From Aquiluna sp. (GTDB lineage: Bacteria > Actinomycetota > Actinomycetes > Actinomycetales > Microbacteriaceae): DNA of 41,472 nucleotides. Position 1 is the stretch's first letter, and each line of letters begins with the position of its first letter. The stretch covers positions 1 to 41,472 of the forward strand of contig JAOGAX010000006.1 of assembly GCA_028144365.1 (NCBI GenBank), in the 5' to 3' direction. Below are positions 27,389 through 32,811 of this stretch, one piece after another. A model generated the notes under the pieces. That model searched no databases. It saw nothing but the letters and a program-made list of their open reading frames with translations, and had not been told where the DNA came from. A program made the position numbers and the translations under genes.

Positions 27389-28987
27389 TTGAGCTCAATA
27401 CTTAGCCTCGCCGGTGTCCTCCGGGAGCACTCAACGAGTCAGCTTCAAGTAGTTCTCTCGCAGATGGTCGGTAACTCAGCCGGCTGTAAGGATCTCTTTG
27501 ATTTGAGCAGGCTGCTACTAACCGGAAGAGAAATCGAGTCTCGCATCCGAAAGCTTCCTGCAAAAGACCTCGAAATGCTTGCAGCTGGAAAGAGCTCCAG
27601 GCAATTGCAGGCGAGCTTTCTCGCTGACAGTAAGCCCTACCCAGAGGCTATAGAGACCCTCGAGAGAATCGAGCCGGGTAAGAGGCCGAGGTTGGATACC
27701 GAAGGCGGAAACCTCTCCGCCTACGAGACCATGCTCTGCCTCACGGAAATTCACTTCGCGCTTGAGCAGCACTGGTTTGATGTCATGAAGACAGGACTTA
27801 GGGCGCAGGATGCAAAGCTGATTGGCGAAAAGCTCAAGTGGCAAAGCAAGGATGTGCAGCTAAGGTTCCGACTTGCCATGCTGGCGGGCCATGTTGCCGA
27901 ACACCACGGTCGCTGGGTCACCACTGAGCTTGGACAAAAGTGGCTTGGGATGACTCGTGAGCAGGCACTTGGTCAGCTAATCGACCGCATCTGGGACTTA
28001 CCCAAGCTGAAGCTGACTGAAGGTGCGATTCTCGAGCAGCTCCTGGAGGCGTTTCCGCTCATGATCACAGTCAACCTCAAGGCCTTGGAGTTCGGCGCAA
28101 CGCTGGGTCTGATGAATCAGGGTCTTGCCATGAAGCCAATAACTCTGGGGCCAAGTGCCGCGGCAAAAGAGATCGCAAAGAACCTTCCCGCGGCAGAAGA
28201 GCGGCTAATTGTCCAGGGTGATCTTTCAATAGTGTGCCCATCACCGTTGACGACCAAGCTGCACAAACAACTCGACTCTTTTGCTGACAGCGAGGACCTA
28301 GGTCTTGCATCCAGGTTTCGGCTCAGTGCCCTATCCCTCTCCCACCACCTAGAAACAGGCGGCAGCCTGAAAGACGTCAGAAAGACGCTTGAGGGTCTTA
28401 GTGGCAACAAGCTGCCCCAACCGGTTGAGTACCTCTTGTCAACAGTTGAGCAGAAGTTTGGAAAGCTCAAAATCTCTCGATCGGGCGACAGCACGATAAT
28501 CGCTGCTGCAGACGAGATTCTGCTGACCCAGATAAAGAACGAGCGTGCGCTCAATCACCTAAGTCTCACTGGCTCTACCGGGGCACTGAAGAGCCCCAGC
28601 TCAGTTGAGCTGAGCTACTTCTCCCTCAGGGACGCAGGATATGCAGCCGTAATGATCGACGATAAGGGCAAAGTCCTGTCACCACGGTTCACCGCAAGCC
28701 TTACTCTCGAAGTCCAGAGCGACGATGAGCTCGAGGCTCGGGCGAAAAACCTTCTCAGCGGAGAAAAGACAGCAGCGGACCCATCGGATGTGCTTAGGCA
28801 ATTGGAGTTTGCGCTTAAGAACAAATTGAAGGTGCAGCTTTCGATTGAGCTTCCTAATGGCAGTGAGGAGAGTTTCTTGCTGACCCCATTGGGACTTGGT
28901 GCAGGAAGGCTCAGAGGACGCGATGAAGAGCGTCAGGCCGAGCGCACTCTCCCGGTCTCAAGAATCAAGTCCGTGGTGCTCAGTTAG
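27389..28987 (+). CDS. Helicase-associated domain protein, XPB partner
   Basis: Protein of 532 aa, leucine-rich and helical throughout (winged-helix-like repeats), with the pattern of the actinobacterial 'helicase-conserved C-terminal/helicase-associated' family encoded just upstream of XPB (like the Rv0862c-Rv0861c pair). No Walker motifs of its own. The C-terminal third (about 370-530, AVMIDDKGKVLSPRFTASL...LPNGSEESFLLTPLGLGAGRLRGRD) resembles a WYL-like small beta domain. It starts with TTG right after the preceding stop. Function is presumably in DNA repair with XPB; that is inference from context. Confidence 0.8.
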   Translation: MSSILSLAGVLREHSTSQLQVVLSQMVGNSAGCKDLFDLSRLLLTGREIESRIRKLPAKDLEMLAAGKSSRQLQASFLADSKPYPEAIETLERIEPGKRPRLDTEGGNLSAYETMLCLTEIHFALEQHWFDVMKTGLRAQDAKLIGEKLKWQSKDVQLRFRLAMLAGHVAEHHGRWVTTELGQKWLGMTREQALGQLIDRIWDLPKLKLTEGAILEQLLEAFPLMITVNLKALEFGATLGLMNQGLAMKPITLGPSAAAKEIAKNLPAAEERLIVQGDLSIVCPSPLTTKLHKQLDSFADSEDLGLASRFRLSALSLSHHLETGGSLKDVRKTLEGLSGNKLPQPVEYLLSTVEQKFGKLKISRSGDSTIIAAADEILLTQIKNERALNHLSLTGSTGALKSPSSVELSYFSLRDAGYAAVMIDDKGKVLSPRFTASLTLEVQSDDELEARAKNLLSGEKTAADPSDVLRQLEFALKNKLKVQLSIELPNGSEESFLLTPLGLGAGRLRGRDEERQAERTLPVSRIKSVVLS

Positions 28988-28996
28988 GCTTAAACG

Positions 28997-30625
28997 ATGT
29001 CTCCCGGCCCCCTAATTGTTCAGTCCGATAGGACTGTGCTGCTTGAGACTGGCCACCCAGATGCCTCAGATGCCCGGCATGAACTTGCAATCTTTGCGGA
29101 GCTAGAGCGAGCACCCGAACACATTCACACCTACCGCATTACCCGGCTCGGGCTTTGGAATGCTCGCGCTGCGGGTCACGATGCGGACTTCATCATTGAC
29201 TCCCTGACTCGTTGGTCAAAATTCGAACTTCCCGGCTCAGTGGTCAGCGAGATTCGCTCGACAATTGACCGCTTCGGAAAGCTCGTTATCACCCGAGACG
29301 ATGAGGGCCTAATTCTCGTTTCCGACTCAGATGCCGTTATGGCCGAGGTCTCTAGCAACAAGAAGGTGGCCGAGCTCCTAGAGGGCAGGGTCGACTCAGG
29401 TTTCCGAATTCAGCCTTGGGCCAGAGGCCAACTCAAGCAGCAGCTTCTGAAGCTGGGCTGGCCAGCTGAGGACAATGCAGGATTCACTCCAGGGACGCCT
29501 TTTGAAATCTCACTGGATAACTCCGATTGGGATCTGAGGGATTATCAAAAGCAGGCGGTAGCGAAGTTTCAAGCAGGTGGCTCGGGAGTGGTCGTGCTGC
29601 CATGTGGGGCGGGTAAGACCCTGGTGGGTGCAGCAACCATGGCAGAGCTGCAGCGCAACACCTTGATACTCGTCACCAACACAGTTGCAGCGAGGCAGTG
29701 GCGAGATGAGTTACTTGCCCGCACCTCACTCCAAGAGGAAGACATTGCCGAATACTCCGGGTCCTCCAAGGAGCTGGCTCCGGTAACGATCGCGACCTAC
29801 CAAATACTCACCACTAAGCGAAAGGGCGAGTTCGCCCATCTAGCGCTGCTCGATGCCAGGGACTGGGGTCTGATCATCTACGACGAGGTTCACCTACTAC
29901 CCGCACCTATTTTCAAGATGACAGCAGACCTTCAGGCCAGAAGAAGACTTGGGCTAACGGCGACCCTGGTTCGTGAGGACGGCAGGGAGTCGGATGTGTT
30001 CTCGCTCATCGGACCTAAGCGTTTCGATGCCCCCTGGAAAGACATCGAGGCCCAGGGCTACATAGCCCCTGCCGAGTGTTTTGAGGTGAGGGTTGAGCTT
30101 CCGGATGAGGAGCGCATGGAATACGCCATTGCCGATGGCGACGCCCGTTTTCGAATTGCCGCGACCGCAAAGGCAAAGATTCCGCTGATGAAGAAGATTC
30201 TGGCCAAGCATGCCGGTGAGCCGACCCTAATAATTGGTCAATACCTCGACCAGATTGACGAGGTGGCAGAACTACTCAACATTCCAAAGCTGACCGGTCA
30301 GACTCCAGTGGATGAGCGCGAGCAGCTCTACAAAGACTTCCGGAGCGGGAAGCTAACCGCGCTGGTGGTGAGCAAGGTTGCAAACTTCTCGGTTGATCTG
30401 CCGGAGGCATCTGTTGCAATCCAGATTTCTGGTGCTTTTGGTTCGAGACAGGAGGAGGCTCAGCGACTCGGCAGACTGCTTAGGCCTAAGCAGGATGGCC
30501 GCACCGCTCAGTTCTACACCCTCATTGCCCGAGACACTCTTGAGCAGGACTTTGCCCAAAACCGTCAGCGGTTTTTGGCGGAGCAGGGCTACTCCTACGA
30601 GATTCTCGACAGCGACTCGATTTAG
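28997..30625 (+). CDS. XPB-type DNA repair helicase
   Basis: SF2 helicase of 542 aa. Walker A is VLPCGAGKTLVG (Lys207), motif II is DEVH (296-299), motif III LGLTATLVREDGR, with C-terminal motifs VVSKVANFSVDLPEASVAIQISG and the arginine finger in QRLGRLLRPK. A ThM/damage-recognition-like N-terminal domain precedes the ATPase core. The full length and intact motifs indicate an active 3'-5' helicase. Bacterial XPB (Mycobacterium Ercc3) unwinds DNA and anneals strands; its place alongside UvrABC is unclear. It follows its partner gene by nine bases. Confidence 0.95.
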   Translation: MSPGPLIVQSDRTVLLETGHPDASDARHELAIFAELERAPEHIHTYRITRLGLWNARAAGHDADFIIDSLTRWSKFELPGSVVSEIRSTIDRFGKLVITRDDEGLILVSDSDAVMAEVSSNKKVAELLEGRVDSGFRIQPWARGQLKQQLLKLGWPAEDNAGFTPGTPFEISLDNSDWDLRDYQKQAVAKFQAGGSGVVVLPCGAGKTLVGAATMAELQRNTLILVTNTVAARQWRDELLARTSLQEEDIAEYSGSSKELAPVTIATYQILTTKRKGEFAHLALLDARDWGLIIYDEVHLLPAPIFKMTADLQARRRLGLTATLVREDGRESDVFSLIGPKRFDAPWKDIEAQGYIAPAECFEVRVELPDEERMEYAIADGDARFRIAATAKAKIPLMKKILAKHAGEPTLIIGQYLDQIDEVAELLNIPKLTGQTPVDEREQLYKDFRSGKLTALVVSKVANFSVDLPEASVAIQISGAFGSRQEEAQRLGRLLRPKQDGRTAQFYTLIARDTLEQDFAQNRQRFLAEQGYSYEILDSDSI

Positions 30626-30626
30626 T

Positions 30627-30659
30627 CCAGCTAACTCCCAGAAAACTTCCAGAAAACCA
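30627..30659 (+). promoter_or_regulatory. Three 11-bp direct repeats before the response regulator
   Basis: CCAGCTAAC, CCAGAAAAC and CCAGAAAAC start at 30627, 30638 and 30649, an exact 11-bp period (one helical turn). They end 16 bp before the response-regulator ATG. This is the layout of OmpR/PhoP-family binding sites, so autoregulation is likely. Confidence 0.6.
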
Positions 30660-30675
30660 GAGCACAATTCTCAGT

Positions 30676-31368
30676 ATGGAAACTCTCAGGGTATTAGTTG
30701 TAGATGATGAACCAAACATTCGTGACCTGCTCTCGGCAAGTTTGAGATTCGCCGGTCACCAGGTTGCGACCAGCCCAAATGGCACGGACGCGATCTCTAA
30801 GATTGTCGACACCCAGCCAGACATAGTCTTGCTCGACGTGATGCTGCCAGACATCTCTGGATTTGGAGTCACCAAGAAAATTCGCGGAATGGGTATTGAT
30901 GTCCCGATTCTTTTTCTCACGGCGCGAGACGACACCGAAGACAAGATCGCTGGCCTAACAGTCGGCGGTGATGACTATGTCACCAAGCCGTTCAGTCTGG
31001 ACGAGATCATGGCTCGCATCAGCGCAATTATGCGCAGGACCGGTAAGGACGGCTCAAGCCCATCGCACATCAAGGTCGGCGAGCTCGAGATTAATGAGGA
31101 TGCTCACGAGGTGACAGTAAATGGCTCCGTAGTTGAGCTCTCCCCCACCGAATATCAGCTGCTTCGCTACCTGGCAAGCAATCCAAACCGAGTACTAACC
31201 AAGGCTCAGATCCTTGACCATGTTTGGGAGTATGACTTCAATGGAGAGATGGGCATCGTCGAAAGCTACGTCTCATACCTGCGGAAGAAGCTGGACCCAA
31301 TTTCAACCGAGCCACTGATTATCACCAAGCGTGGTGTCGGCTACATGATCAAAAGCCCCAAGGCATAG
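30676..31368 (+). CDS. OmpR/PhoP-family response regulator
   Basis: Protein of 230 aa. Receiver domain at 5-118 with the acidic pair DD (10-11), phosphoacceptor Asp54 (VLLDVMLPD), Thr in FLTARD and Lys104 in YVTKPFS. The winged-helix DNA-binding domain is at about 132-228 (ELSPTEYQLLRYLASNPNRVLTKAQILDHVWEYDF...VESYVSYLRKKLD). It resembles mycobacterial PhoP/TcrX-type regulators, but the signal is not known. Paired with the kinase three bases downstream; likely self-regulated through the three upstream direct repeats. Confidence 0.95.
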   Translation: METLRVLVVDDEPNIRDLLSASLRFAGHQVATSPNGTDAISKIVDTQPDIVLLDVMLPDISGFGVTKKIRGMGIDVPILFLTARDDTEDKIAGLTVGGDDYVTKPFSLDEIMARISAIMRRTGKDGSSPSHIKVGELEINEDAHEVTVNGSVVELSPTEYQLLRYLASNPNRVLTKAQILDHVWEYDFNGEMGIVESYVSYLRKKLDPISTEPLIITKRGVGYMIKSPKA

Positions 31369-31371
31369 CCC

Positions 31372-32811
31372 TTGAAAAACAGGGTCTTAGCAGCCTGGGA
31401 GCGAATCTCCCTTAGGGCAAAGCTCACCACGCTAAGTGTTGGGCTTATTGGCCTTCTGCTAAGCGTCTCGAGTGCTGGAACCGTCGCCCTGCTAAGTACC
31501 TATCTCCAGCAGAACACTGACAACCTCCTGGTTGCCACAGCAAACCAGCTGCGTGAAGAGAATCCGCTTCGCATAGAGATAAGGGTTGCAACCGGCGACC
31601 TCACCCTGCCCGCTCTTCCAAGCGACTACTACATCGCGATCTTGGATGCCGACGGCAATCAGTTCCTTGGGCTCGTCTCATCAACCGGCGGCAACAGAAC
31701 TGTTCCGAACCTATCGAGCCTGGATATCGAGGCTGTAATGGAAACCGGTGGTGTTCCATTCGATGCAGAGGTAGAAGACCCCAATGGCCCAGACAGAGAC
31801 TGGCGCATGATTGCCCAGCCGCTCCTGAGAGCCAATGGCTCGGTGGTTGTTGCGCTGCCGACTAACACAAACCGGCAGATCATTGCGGAGTATGGAGTAA
31901 TCGGCGGCAGGTTTGGAATCTTTCTACTAGTTCTCTCTGGCCTGAGTATCTGGCTCACCATCACCGGAGCCCTGAGGCCGCTAAAAGAAGTTGAGCGCAC
32001 GGCCGAGGCGGTGCAGAGCGGTAAGTTCTCCTCGAGACTTGTCCAGCGCCATGGCAAAACCGAGATTGGAAGGCTCAATAGAGCGCTGAACTCGATGCTT
32101 GACTCCATTGAGGGTGCTGTCAAGGGCAAGGACAAGACCCTGGCGCAAATGCGTAGGTTTGTTTCCGATGCCAGCCATGAGCTCCGCACTCCCCTGGTCA
32201 CCGTCCGCGGCTATGCAGAGCTCTACCGCATGGGCGCAATCAAGAACAAAAAAGACCTAACAGAGGCGATGAGCCGCATCGAGAGCGAGGCGGTGAGAAT
32301 GTCCGGCCTAGTTGAGTCGCTACTCACGCTGACCCGCATGGACGAGCTCGAAAATCTAAAGCGTCAAGACTGCGACCTAATTGAGATCGCTAGGCAAAGC
32401 ATCAAGGATGTCGCTGTGACAAACCAGAAGGTCAGCTTTCGCCTGACGACCAAGGAGGAGAGCGTTGTTCTCTCCCTGGACGACGACCGCATAAAGCAGG
32501 TACTAACAAACCTCTTGGCAAACGCATCGCGCTTTGCCCCAGAGTCCAGTGAAGTCACGCTAGAGGTAAATACCGAGGACGACAAGGTCATCCTCAAGGC
32601 AGTAGATCGCGGCGAAGGTATTGACGACTCACTGAAGGAGAAGGTCTTTGACCGCTTCTACCGAGCTGATAACTCGCGCAACCGTGAGACTGGAGGCTCC
32701 GGTCTCGGGCTCGCAATTGCCAAGTCCATAGTCGATGCTCACGAGGGCAGGATTTGGGTCGAGGACACCTTAGGCGGCGGAGCAACCTTCGTAGTTGAGC
32801 TTGGTCGGTAG
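31372..32811 (+). CDS. Sensor histidine kinase
   Basis: Protein of 479 aa: helix 1 at about 17-42, extracytoplasmic sensor about 45-175, helix 2 about 178-198, HAMP about 200-250, HisKA with His269 (RRFVSDASHELRTPL), and HATPase with N box NLLANASRFAP, G1 VDRGEGI, F box FDRFYRADNSR and G2 GGSGLGLAIA. All catalytic residues are present. The external domain (about 130 aa) has no recognised ligand motif. TTG start three bases after the response-regulator stop. Cognate kinase of the upstream regulator. Confidence 0.94.
   Translation: MKNRVLAAWERISLRAKLTTLSVGLIGLLLSVSSAGTVALLSTYLQQNTDNLLVATANQLREENPLRIEIRVATGDLTLPALPSDYYIAILDADGNQFLGLVSSTGGNRTVPNLSSLDIEAVMETGGVPFDAEVEDPNGPDRDWRMIAQPLLRANGSVVVALPTNTNRQIIAEYGVIGGRFGIFLLVLSGLSIWLTITGALRPLKEVERTAEAVQSGKFSSRLVQRHGKTEIGRLNRALNSMLDSIEGAVKGKDKTLAQMRRFVSDASHELRTPLVTVRGYAELYRMGAIKNKKDLTEAMSRIESEAVRMSGLVESLLTLTRMDELENLKRQDCDLIEIARQSIKDVAVTNQKVSFRLTTKEESVVLSLDDDRIKQVLTNLLANASRFAPESSEVTLEVNTEDDKVILKAVDRGEGIDDSLKEKVFDRFYRADNSRNRETGGSGLGLAIAKSIVDAHEGRIWVEDTLGGGATFVVELGR

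What the first reader, a model, noticed from the sequence alone, without database searches (positions are those of the whole stretch)
30627..30659. Three 11-bp-phased direct repeats in front of the two-component operon
CCAGCTAAC, CCAGAAAAC and CCAGAAAAC begin at 30627, 30638 and 30649, one helical turn apart, directly after the XPB stop and 16 bp from the response regulator ATG. OmpR/PhoP proteins bind such phased direct repeats as dimers. The motif could be used to find the regulon.
Basis: partly seen in the sequence, partly recalled or inferred. Interest (0 to 1): 0.5.

Follow-up and report, generated by a model that had tools for sequence, protein, structure and literature searches.

The report
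Self-control switch of a two-component operon
Three copies of a short DNA word, spaced one helical turn apart in front of a bacterial signalling operon, are kept in most relatives examined and probably let the regulator control its own gene, as a cousin in other actinobacteria does.

Summary
In the window's genus (Aquiluna by nearest named records), CAG stands near -36 and -25 of the start codon in 19 of 19 orthologue upstreams and near -47 in 15; in 53 other non-redundant Microbacteriaceae, at -36 in 51, -25 in 42, -14 in 38; four off-phase positions give 0-1. Outside the family, 49 of 67 upstreams hold CAG-N8-CAG against a shuffle mean of 3.9. Among solved structures the regulator is closest to M. 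tuberculosis PhoP, which binds 7-bp motifs with a 4-bp spacer, also in three- and four-motif arrays. The array covers the -35 region of a probably leaderless promoter, so autoregulation, probably activation, is likely. In related genomes the phased motif stands before a DUF2231/cytochrome-b5 membrane protein and, reversed, before a secreted protein of unknown family. This is a known kind of operator. New here, as far as I searched, are its depth of conservation, its promoter geometry and a candidate regulon. No binding was tested.

The parts
30627..30635 (+). unit 1, CCAGCTAAC (CAG at -48 from the ATG)
   Evidence: the -47/-48 unit is present in 15 of 19 genus upstreams and 6 of 53 other family members
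30638..30646 (+). unit 2, CCAGAAAAC (CAG at -37)
   Evidence: the -36/-37 unit is present in 19 of 19 genus and 51 of 53 other family upstreams
30649..30657 (+). unit 3, CCAGAAAAC (CAG at -26)
   Evidence: the -25/-26 unit is present in 19 of 19 and 42 of 53
30663..30668 (+). -10-like hexamer CACAAT, 7 bases before the ATG; the register of the family's fourth unit (CAG at -14) falls here but is degenerate in the window
   Evidence: 4 of 6 to TATAAT in the window; 3 of 6 in 14 and 4 of 6 in 5 of the 19 genus upstreams; family mean best score 3.9 at this place against 2.2 at two control places. No -35/-10 pair passes the consensus scan
30676..31368 (+). OmpR/PhoB-family response regulator, PhoP-like; its ATG is probably the first codon of a leaderless transcript
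   Evidence: Shine-Dalgarno-like motif in 1 of 19 genus and 3 of 53 other family upstreams
31372..32811 (+). sensor histidine kinase (HAMP, HisKA, HATPase_c), second gene of the operon; start codon uncertain
28997..30625 (+). XPB-type DNA repair helicase whose stop codon lies just before unit 1 (context, not part of the operator)

Best explanation
The repeats are the operator of the operon's own response regulator. Phosphorylated regulator molecules bind head to tail, one per 11-bp unit on one face of the helix, as a cooperative tandem array covering the -35 region, in the place of a -35 hexamer. They most likely recruit RNA polymerase to a -10 at 30663-30668, from which a leaderless mRNA starts at or near the ATG at 30676 (positive autoregulation). 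Shown: the repeats, their phase, their conservation and fixed register, the regulator family. Inferred: binding, number of molecules, start site, and the sign of control.
For: Exact repeat. Register: CAG at -47/-36/-25 in 15/19/19 of 19 genus upstreams and at -36/-25/-14 in 51/42/38 of 53 other non-redundant family upstreams; four off-phase positions give 0-1. Spacing: in two non-redundant sets 43 of 53 (family) and 49 of 67 (outside) have CAG pairs at 11 bp, against 1 and 2 at 10 bp and 6 and 5 at 12 bp; shuffle means 2.7 and 3.9. Not a by-product of the XPB end: of family loci with at least 300 upstream bases, 25 of 27 without XPB coding within 900 bases have the pair, and 31 of 50 with it. 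M. tuberculosis PhoP is the best solved relative (3e-79); the next other regulator, PrrA, is at 9e-52. E215, S216, Y217 and Y220 of the PhoP recognition helix, and S219 and R222, are identical in the window protein; of ten tandem-interface positions that I checked seven are identical. M. tuberculosis PhoP needs a 4-bp spacer between 7-bp motifs and binds three- and four-motif DNA. No canonical -35, but a -10-like hexamer at a fixed place in the family.
Against: No binding or expression data. The half-site differs from TCACAGC: the base before CAG is not fixed as A, and contact residues N212 and V213 are G and I here. L113, P196 and E161 of the interface differ, as does phosphate-contacting R204 (E here). 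M. tuberculosis PhoP's own site is reported downstream of +1 (passage of PMC3413638), so promoter geometry is not shared with that gene. 10 of 53 family and 18 of 67 outside-family upstreams lack an exact CAG-N8-CAG. Class-level loci were chosen by hand from the best-scoring matches. Within the genus the -10-like hexamer is weak (3 of 6 matches in 14 of 19, no control run).
Confidence: 0.85

Rival explanations
1. The same protein binds the same array but represses the operon (negative autoregulation by covering the -35 and, in many relatives, the -10).
For: In 38 of 53 family upstreams a unit lies at -14, overlapping the -10-like hexamer, a position that could block polymerase.
Against: There is no consensus -35 to block, and an array in place of a -35 is the layout described for PhoB-type activation (passage of PMC3413638). 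In the window's genus the -14 unit is mostly absent (2 of 19).
Confidence: 0.3
2. The array is the binding site of another OmpR-family regulator that controls this operon from elsewhere in the genome.
For: Cross-regulation between two-component systems occurs (recalled). The own genome is 55% complete, so other regulators may be missing.
Against: The array accompanies this regulator across the class sample, and the half-site resembles the motif of its closest solved relative. The only other Trans_reg_C protein found in the own genome has no evident receiver domain in its open frame.
Confidence: 0.1
3. Chance repeat, or a by-product of the end of the XPB gene.
For: The array starts two bases after the XPB stop.
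Against: No matches in shuffles; fixed register in 19 of 19 genus and 51 of 53 family upstreams at -36; a phased pair in 25 of 27 family loci without XPB in front.
Confidence: 0.01

Closest known systems
M. tuberculosis PhoP and its direct-repeat box (TCACAGC-N4-TCACAGC; PMC4832192)
   Same: 11-bp period, CAG core of the half-site, head-to-tail array, four of six base-contacting residues, autoregulation of the regulator's own gene; boxes near -35 are proposed there for lipF and pks2
   Different: Half-site relaxed before CAG; N212 is G and V213 is I; here the own-gene array lies over the -35 region of a probably leaderless promoter, whereas the M. tuberculosis phoP site is reported downstream of +1, and its third repeat in other targets lies at a variable distance
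Streptomyces PhoP / Microlunatus PolR boxes (11-nt units with GTTCAC; passages of PMC6754071)
   Same: 11-bp direct-repeat units bound by a response regulator
   Different: Different half-site, GTTCAC rather than NNNCAG
E. coli PhoB pho box (as described in passages of PMC3413638)
   Same: Box that takes the place of the -35 element of an activated promoter
   Different: Different half-site and usually two units (both recalled); here three units and a probably leaderless gene

Membership tests
OmpR/PhoB response regulators | receiver domain plus winged-helix effector | tested here: met
   PF00072 97.2 bits and PF00486 89.4 bits, both over cut-off
OmpR/PhoB response regulators | phospho-acceptor aspartate and switch Thr/Tyr | tested here: met
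   D54, T82 and Y101 align with D71, T99 and Y118 of M. tuberculosis PhoP
PhoP clade (M. tuberculosis PhoP type) | closest to PhoP among solved regulators | tested here: met
   3e-79 against 9e-52 for PrrA, 5.8e-47 for RegX3, 5.2e-45 for MtrA; reciprocal best match not tested
PhoP clade (M. tuberculosis PhoP type) | identity at all six base-contacting side chains (N212, V213, E215, S216, Y217, Y220) | tested here: not met
   four of six identical; N212 is G193, V213 is I194. Filed therefore as PhoP-like, not as PhoP
PhoP clade (M. tuberculosis PhoP type) | operator of 7-bp motifs with a 4-bp spacer (11-bp period) | tested here: met
   11-bp period in window, family and class sample
PhoP clade (M. 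tuberculosis PhoP type) | TCACAGC consensus | tested here: not met
   window units read GTCCAGC, TCCCAGA, TTCCAGA; the base before CAG is A in 27 of 189 units of regulators without N212 and 45 of 88 of those with it
Autoregulated two-component operon | regulator binds its own promoter | not testable with these tools
   needs shift or footprint assays
NCBIfam equivalogs (PhoB, MtrA and others) | score over curated cut-off | tested here: not met
   best, PhoB, 218.9 bits with cut-off 296.2; none of the 25 families shown (of 103 matched) passes

The most novel reading that the evidence does not exclude
An actinomycete-wide PhoP-type operator has a half-site whose specificity follows one recognition-helix residue (N or G at M. 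tuberculosis position 212 sets whether A is preferred before CAG). In aquatic Microbacteriaceae this relaxed box runs a small envelope regulon that includes a secreted protein family of unknown function (box reversed) and a DUF2231/cytochrome-b5 membrane protein with the same promoter geometry as the regulator gene itself.
Probability: 0.35. Interest if true: 0.55.

Novelty: new member of a known kind. Interest (0 to 1): 0.42.

Why it matters
It offers a model outside the tuberculosis agent, in bacteria known here mostly from metagenome assemblies, for a regulator type described mainly there. The array geometry, the relaxed half-site and the residue difference make a specificity question directly testable, and the motif gives a first regulon guess for small-genome aquatic actinobacteria.

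Tried and rejected
Chance and coding by-product were rejected on the conservation counts. Own-genome two-unit hits with 1-2 mismatches (window 2229; C2:10691) were not convincing as gene-start sites, and at that tolerance the own genome has fewer matches (4) than the reversed control (6). Family-wide three-unit search with 1 mismatch: 6 of 150 genomes, the own genome being one, control 0 in all 150; the other five hits were not followed up, and the pattern is too strict, since it assumes CCAG and AAC throughout. In the genus pattern search several hits lie inside coding sequence (L274, L285, L281, L283) and were set aside as probably chance. Of eight stand-alone DUF2231 homologues, six could be read: five show no phased pair within 400 bases upstream, one (L307) has a pair about 350 bases upstream, before a small preceding gene.

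Residue/base covariation: by unit counts the base before CAG is the position most associated with residue 212 (Cramer's V 0.41 in all loci; 0.44, p 1.5e-6, outside the family; 13 offsets, three of them the fixed CAG). On the tree (85 proteins, 63 with both traits) the residue changes only 6 times, 3 independent pairs lie on starred branches (6 on all), and the sign test is not significant. It is a lead, not a result.

Script slips: one search missed some starts (redone); mis-indexed loci cut by contig ends (L287 and L288 redone; L292, L295, L311, L313 not redone and not used); one fetched stretch was 2 bases by my typing error (L203, dropped).

Literature: searches. The one combining Microbacteriaceae, response regulator, direct repeat and PhoP returned 0 papers; in the 10 listed (of 116) of the other Microbacteriaceae search that word occurs 0 times. 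This covers only the open-licence library held.

Full report
OBSERVATION. The sequence at 30627-30657 reads CCAGCTAACTCCCAGAAAACTTCCAGAAAAC: three CCAGNNAAC units at exact 11-bp spacing. Shuffled windows never gave a match even at 3 mismatches (100 shuffles). In the 707-kb own genome the exact two-unit pattern occurs nowhere else; at up to 2 mismatches it shows no excess (4 matches, reversed control 6). The array lies between the stop of an XPB helicase (NCBIfam equivalog, 837 bits) and the ATG of a response regulator followed by a histidine kinase.

WHERE IT COMES FROM. The nearest named records are Aquiluna and Microbacteriaceae assemblies (regulator 99-87% identical, L005-L011). The genome held is 55% complete.

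CONSERVATION. In 80 homologous loci, the best kept of 581, phased CAGs are visible upstream of most. Anchored on the ATG, 58 non-redundant upstreams (of 81 including the window) show information peaks at -36 to -34, -25 to -23, -20 to -18 and -14 to -7, and at most 0.21 bits beyond -50. In the genus, 19 of 22 genomes have the orthologue at E 1e-60 or better; the three without are at most 77% complete. Counted directly, CAG stands within one base of -47/-36/-25/-14 in 15/19/19/2 of 19 genus upstreams (window plus 18; some nearly identical) and in 6/51/42/38 of 53 other non-redundant family upstreams (of 73), against 0 or 1 at four off-phase positions. So the register relative to the start is fixed, while the genus has its three occupied units one step further upstream. 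The pair does not depend on XPB: 25 of 27 family loci without XPB coding within 900 bases upstream have it, 31 of 50 with it, three loci being too short to judge.

SPACING. In a separate selection, CAG-N8-CAG occurs in 43 of 53 family and 49 of 67 outside-family non-redundant upstreams; mononucleotide shuffles give means of 2.7 and 3.9 with maxima of 8 and 10 in 500. Spacings of 10 and 12 bp occur in 1 and 6 (family) and 2 and 5 (outside); 22 bp peaks as well (44 and 36), and smaller peaks stand at 8 and 18 bp in the family (13 and 16). The control words GAC and CTG show no comparable peak at 11. The outside-family loci were chosen by hand from the score-ranked matches of a 246-genome class sample: 18 of the 30 loci it returned (L135-L152) plus 59 fetched stretches (one 2-base slip dropped), two of them second matches in a genome; 67 non-redundant of 77. 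They lean to closer homologues. 10 of 53 and 18 of 67 lack an exact pair.

THE REGULATOR. The protein is a receiver plus winged-helix regulator. Its best solved relative is M. tuberculosis PhoP (3e-79), far ahead of PrrA, RegX3 and MtrA. None of the 25 NCBIfam families shown (of 103 matched) passes its cut-off. From the PhoP-DNA structure paper (PMC4832192; parts 1-2 of 6 and passages read) the base-contacting side chains are N212, V213, E215, S216, Y217 and Y220; the window has G, I, E, S, Y, Y. Of ten interface positions that I checked, F42, T112, G114, G115, Y118, D200 and Y205 are kept; L113 is V, P196 is A and E161 is D (same calls). The paper reports a strict 4-bp spacer (a 3-bp spacer cuts affinity about 20-fold) and measured binding to three- and four-motif DNA, which fits arrays of three or four units.

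PROMOTER. No sigma-70 pair passes the scan, but a -10-like hexamer stands at the expected place. The family mean best match to TATAAT is 3.9 of 6 there against 2.2 at two control places, at -12 in 39 of 53; the window has CACAAT at -13, and the genus scores are low (3 or 4 of 6, no control run). Shine-Dalgarno-like motifs are rare (1 of 19, 3 of 53), so the transcript is probably leaderless. The array thus lies over the -35 region, the layout that PMC3413638 (passages) describes for PhoB-type activation and proposes for lipF and pks2. The same passages say that the M. tuberculosis phoP site lies downstream of +1 and that three direct repeats were first described there (that original paper, Gupta et al. 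2006, was seen only as a citation).

REGULON LEADS. In 22 genus genomes a three-unit pattern with up to 2 mismatches gives 38 hits against 15 for its reversed control, and an exact two-unit pattern 38 against 13; 11 of the latter 38 are the regulator's own promoter. Two families recur. (a) A secreted protein without a Pfam match or NCBIfam match, in 14 of 22 genus genomes including the own genome. CTG-N8-CTG, the same motif on the other strand, stands 97-111 bp before its start in 14 of 14; 10 of 10 non-redundant, shuffle mean 0.41, maximum 4 in 2000; a plus-strand pair occurs in 7 of 14. In the family sample the protein was found only in this genus and one other (4 of 150 genomes); in that second genus 10 of 40 genomes have it and 9 of 10 have CTG-N8-CTG within 260 bases upstream (no shuffle run, some loci near-duplicates). 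These upstreams are homologous, so the shuffle figure overstates the independence, and the reversed orientation is unexplained. (b) A DUF2231/cytochrome-b5 membrane protein. Of 6 full-length copies, 4 have CAG at -47/-36/-25 or one base off, the same geometry as the regulator gene; one keeps the outer two units; one has three phased units at another distance from an uncertain start. The own genome shows no match to it. Single or few-genome leads: a DUF305/CopM-like lipoprotein, a ClgR-like regulator, an NlpC/P60 protein and a DUF4190 protein.

SPECIFICITY LEAD. Regulators with N at position 212 have A before CAG in 45 of 88 units; those without, in 27 of 189 (all loci) or 10 of 68 (outside the family). 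The paper gives N212 a water-mediated bond to exactly that A. Of 13 offsets this one is the most associated, in all loci together and outside the family. The tree shows only 6 residue changes and an inconclusive pair test, so shared ancestry can explain it.

VERDICT. The finding is right and its interpretation is well supported. It is a conserved, PhoP-like operator, probably autoregulatory, a new member of a known kind, with a geometry and candidate regulon worth testing. Binding and the sign of control are inferred.

Noticed in passing
L218:1501-2118 (G000:C30:7328-7945) and L213-L226, L246-L254: Secreted protein family without Pfam or NCBIfam match, with a reversed 11-bp-phased CAG pair about 100 bp upstream in two genera; in the four loci read for context (L095, L097, L101, L105) it follows a gene for a multi-pass membrane protein (TRIC-like by recall).
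   Followed up: partly
L263:330-1481, L268, L272, L276; L286-L291: DUF2231 membrane protein fused to one or two cytochrome-b5 domains; in four of six copies the promoter copies the regulator gene's array register (-47/-36/-25).
   Followed up: partly
L257, L275: ClgR-like HTH gene (below the ClgR cut-off) with one phased CAG pair upstream, in two genus genomes.
   Followed up: no
L273 (and G161:C18, G165:C29, G166:C24): NlpC/P60 protein gene with one phased CAG pair upstream (L273); the same 19-base word recurs in three other genus genomes, whose genes were not read.
   Followed up: no
L262:1566-2165: DUF305/CopM-like lipoprotein gene with a phased CAG pair upstream, located just after a P-type ATPase-like gene (recognised by eye).
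   Followed up: no
L259 / L096 (G155:C1:438270): A different small secreted protein with a phased CAG array about 130 bases upstream, in a genome without the secreted family above.
   Followed up: no
27389-28987: Gene in front of XPB carries the same Helicase_C_3 domain as the XPB N-terminus and weakly matches the XPB model; a possible XPB partner.
   Followed up: no
G000:C26:34766-34981 (L092): The only other Trans_reg_C protein found in the own genome has no evident receiver domain in its open frame.
   Followed up: partly
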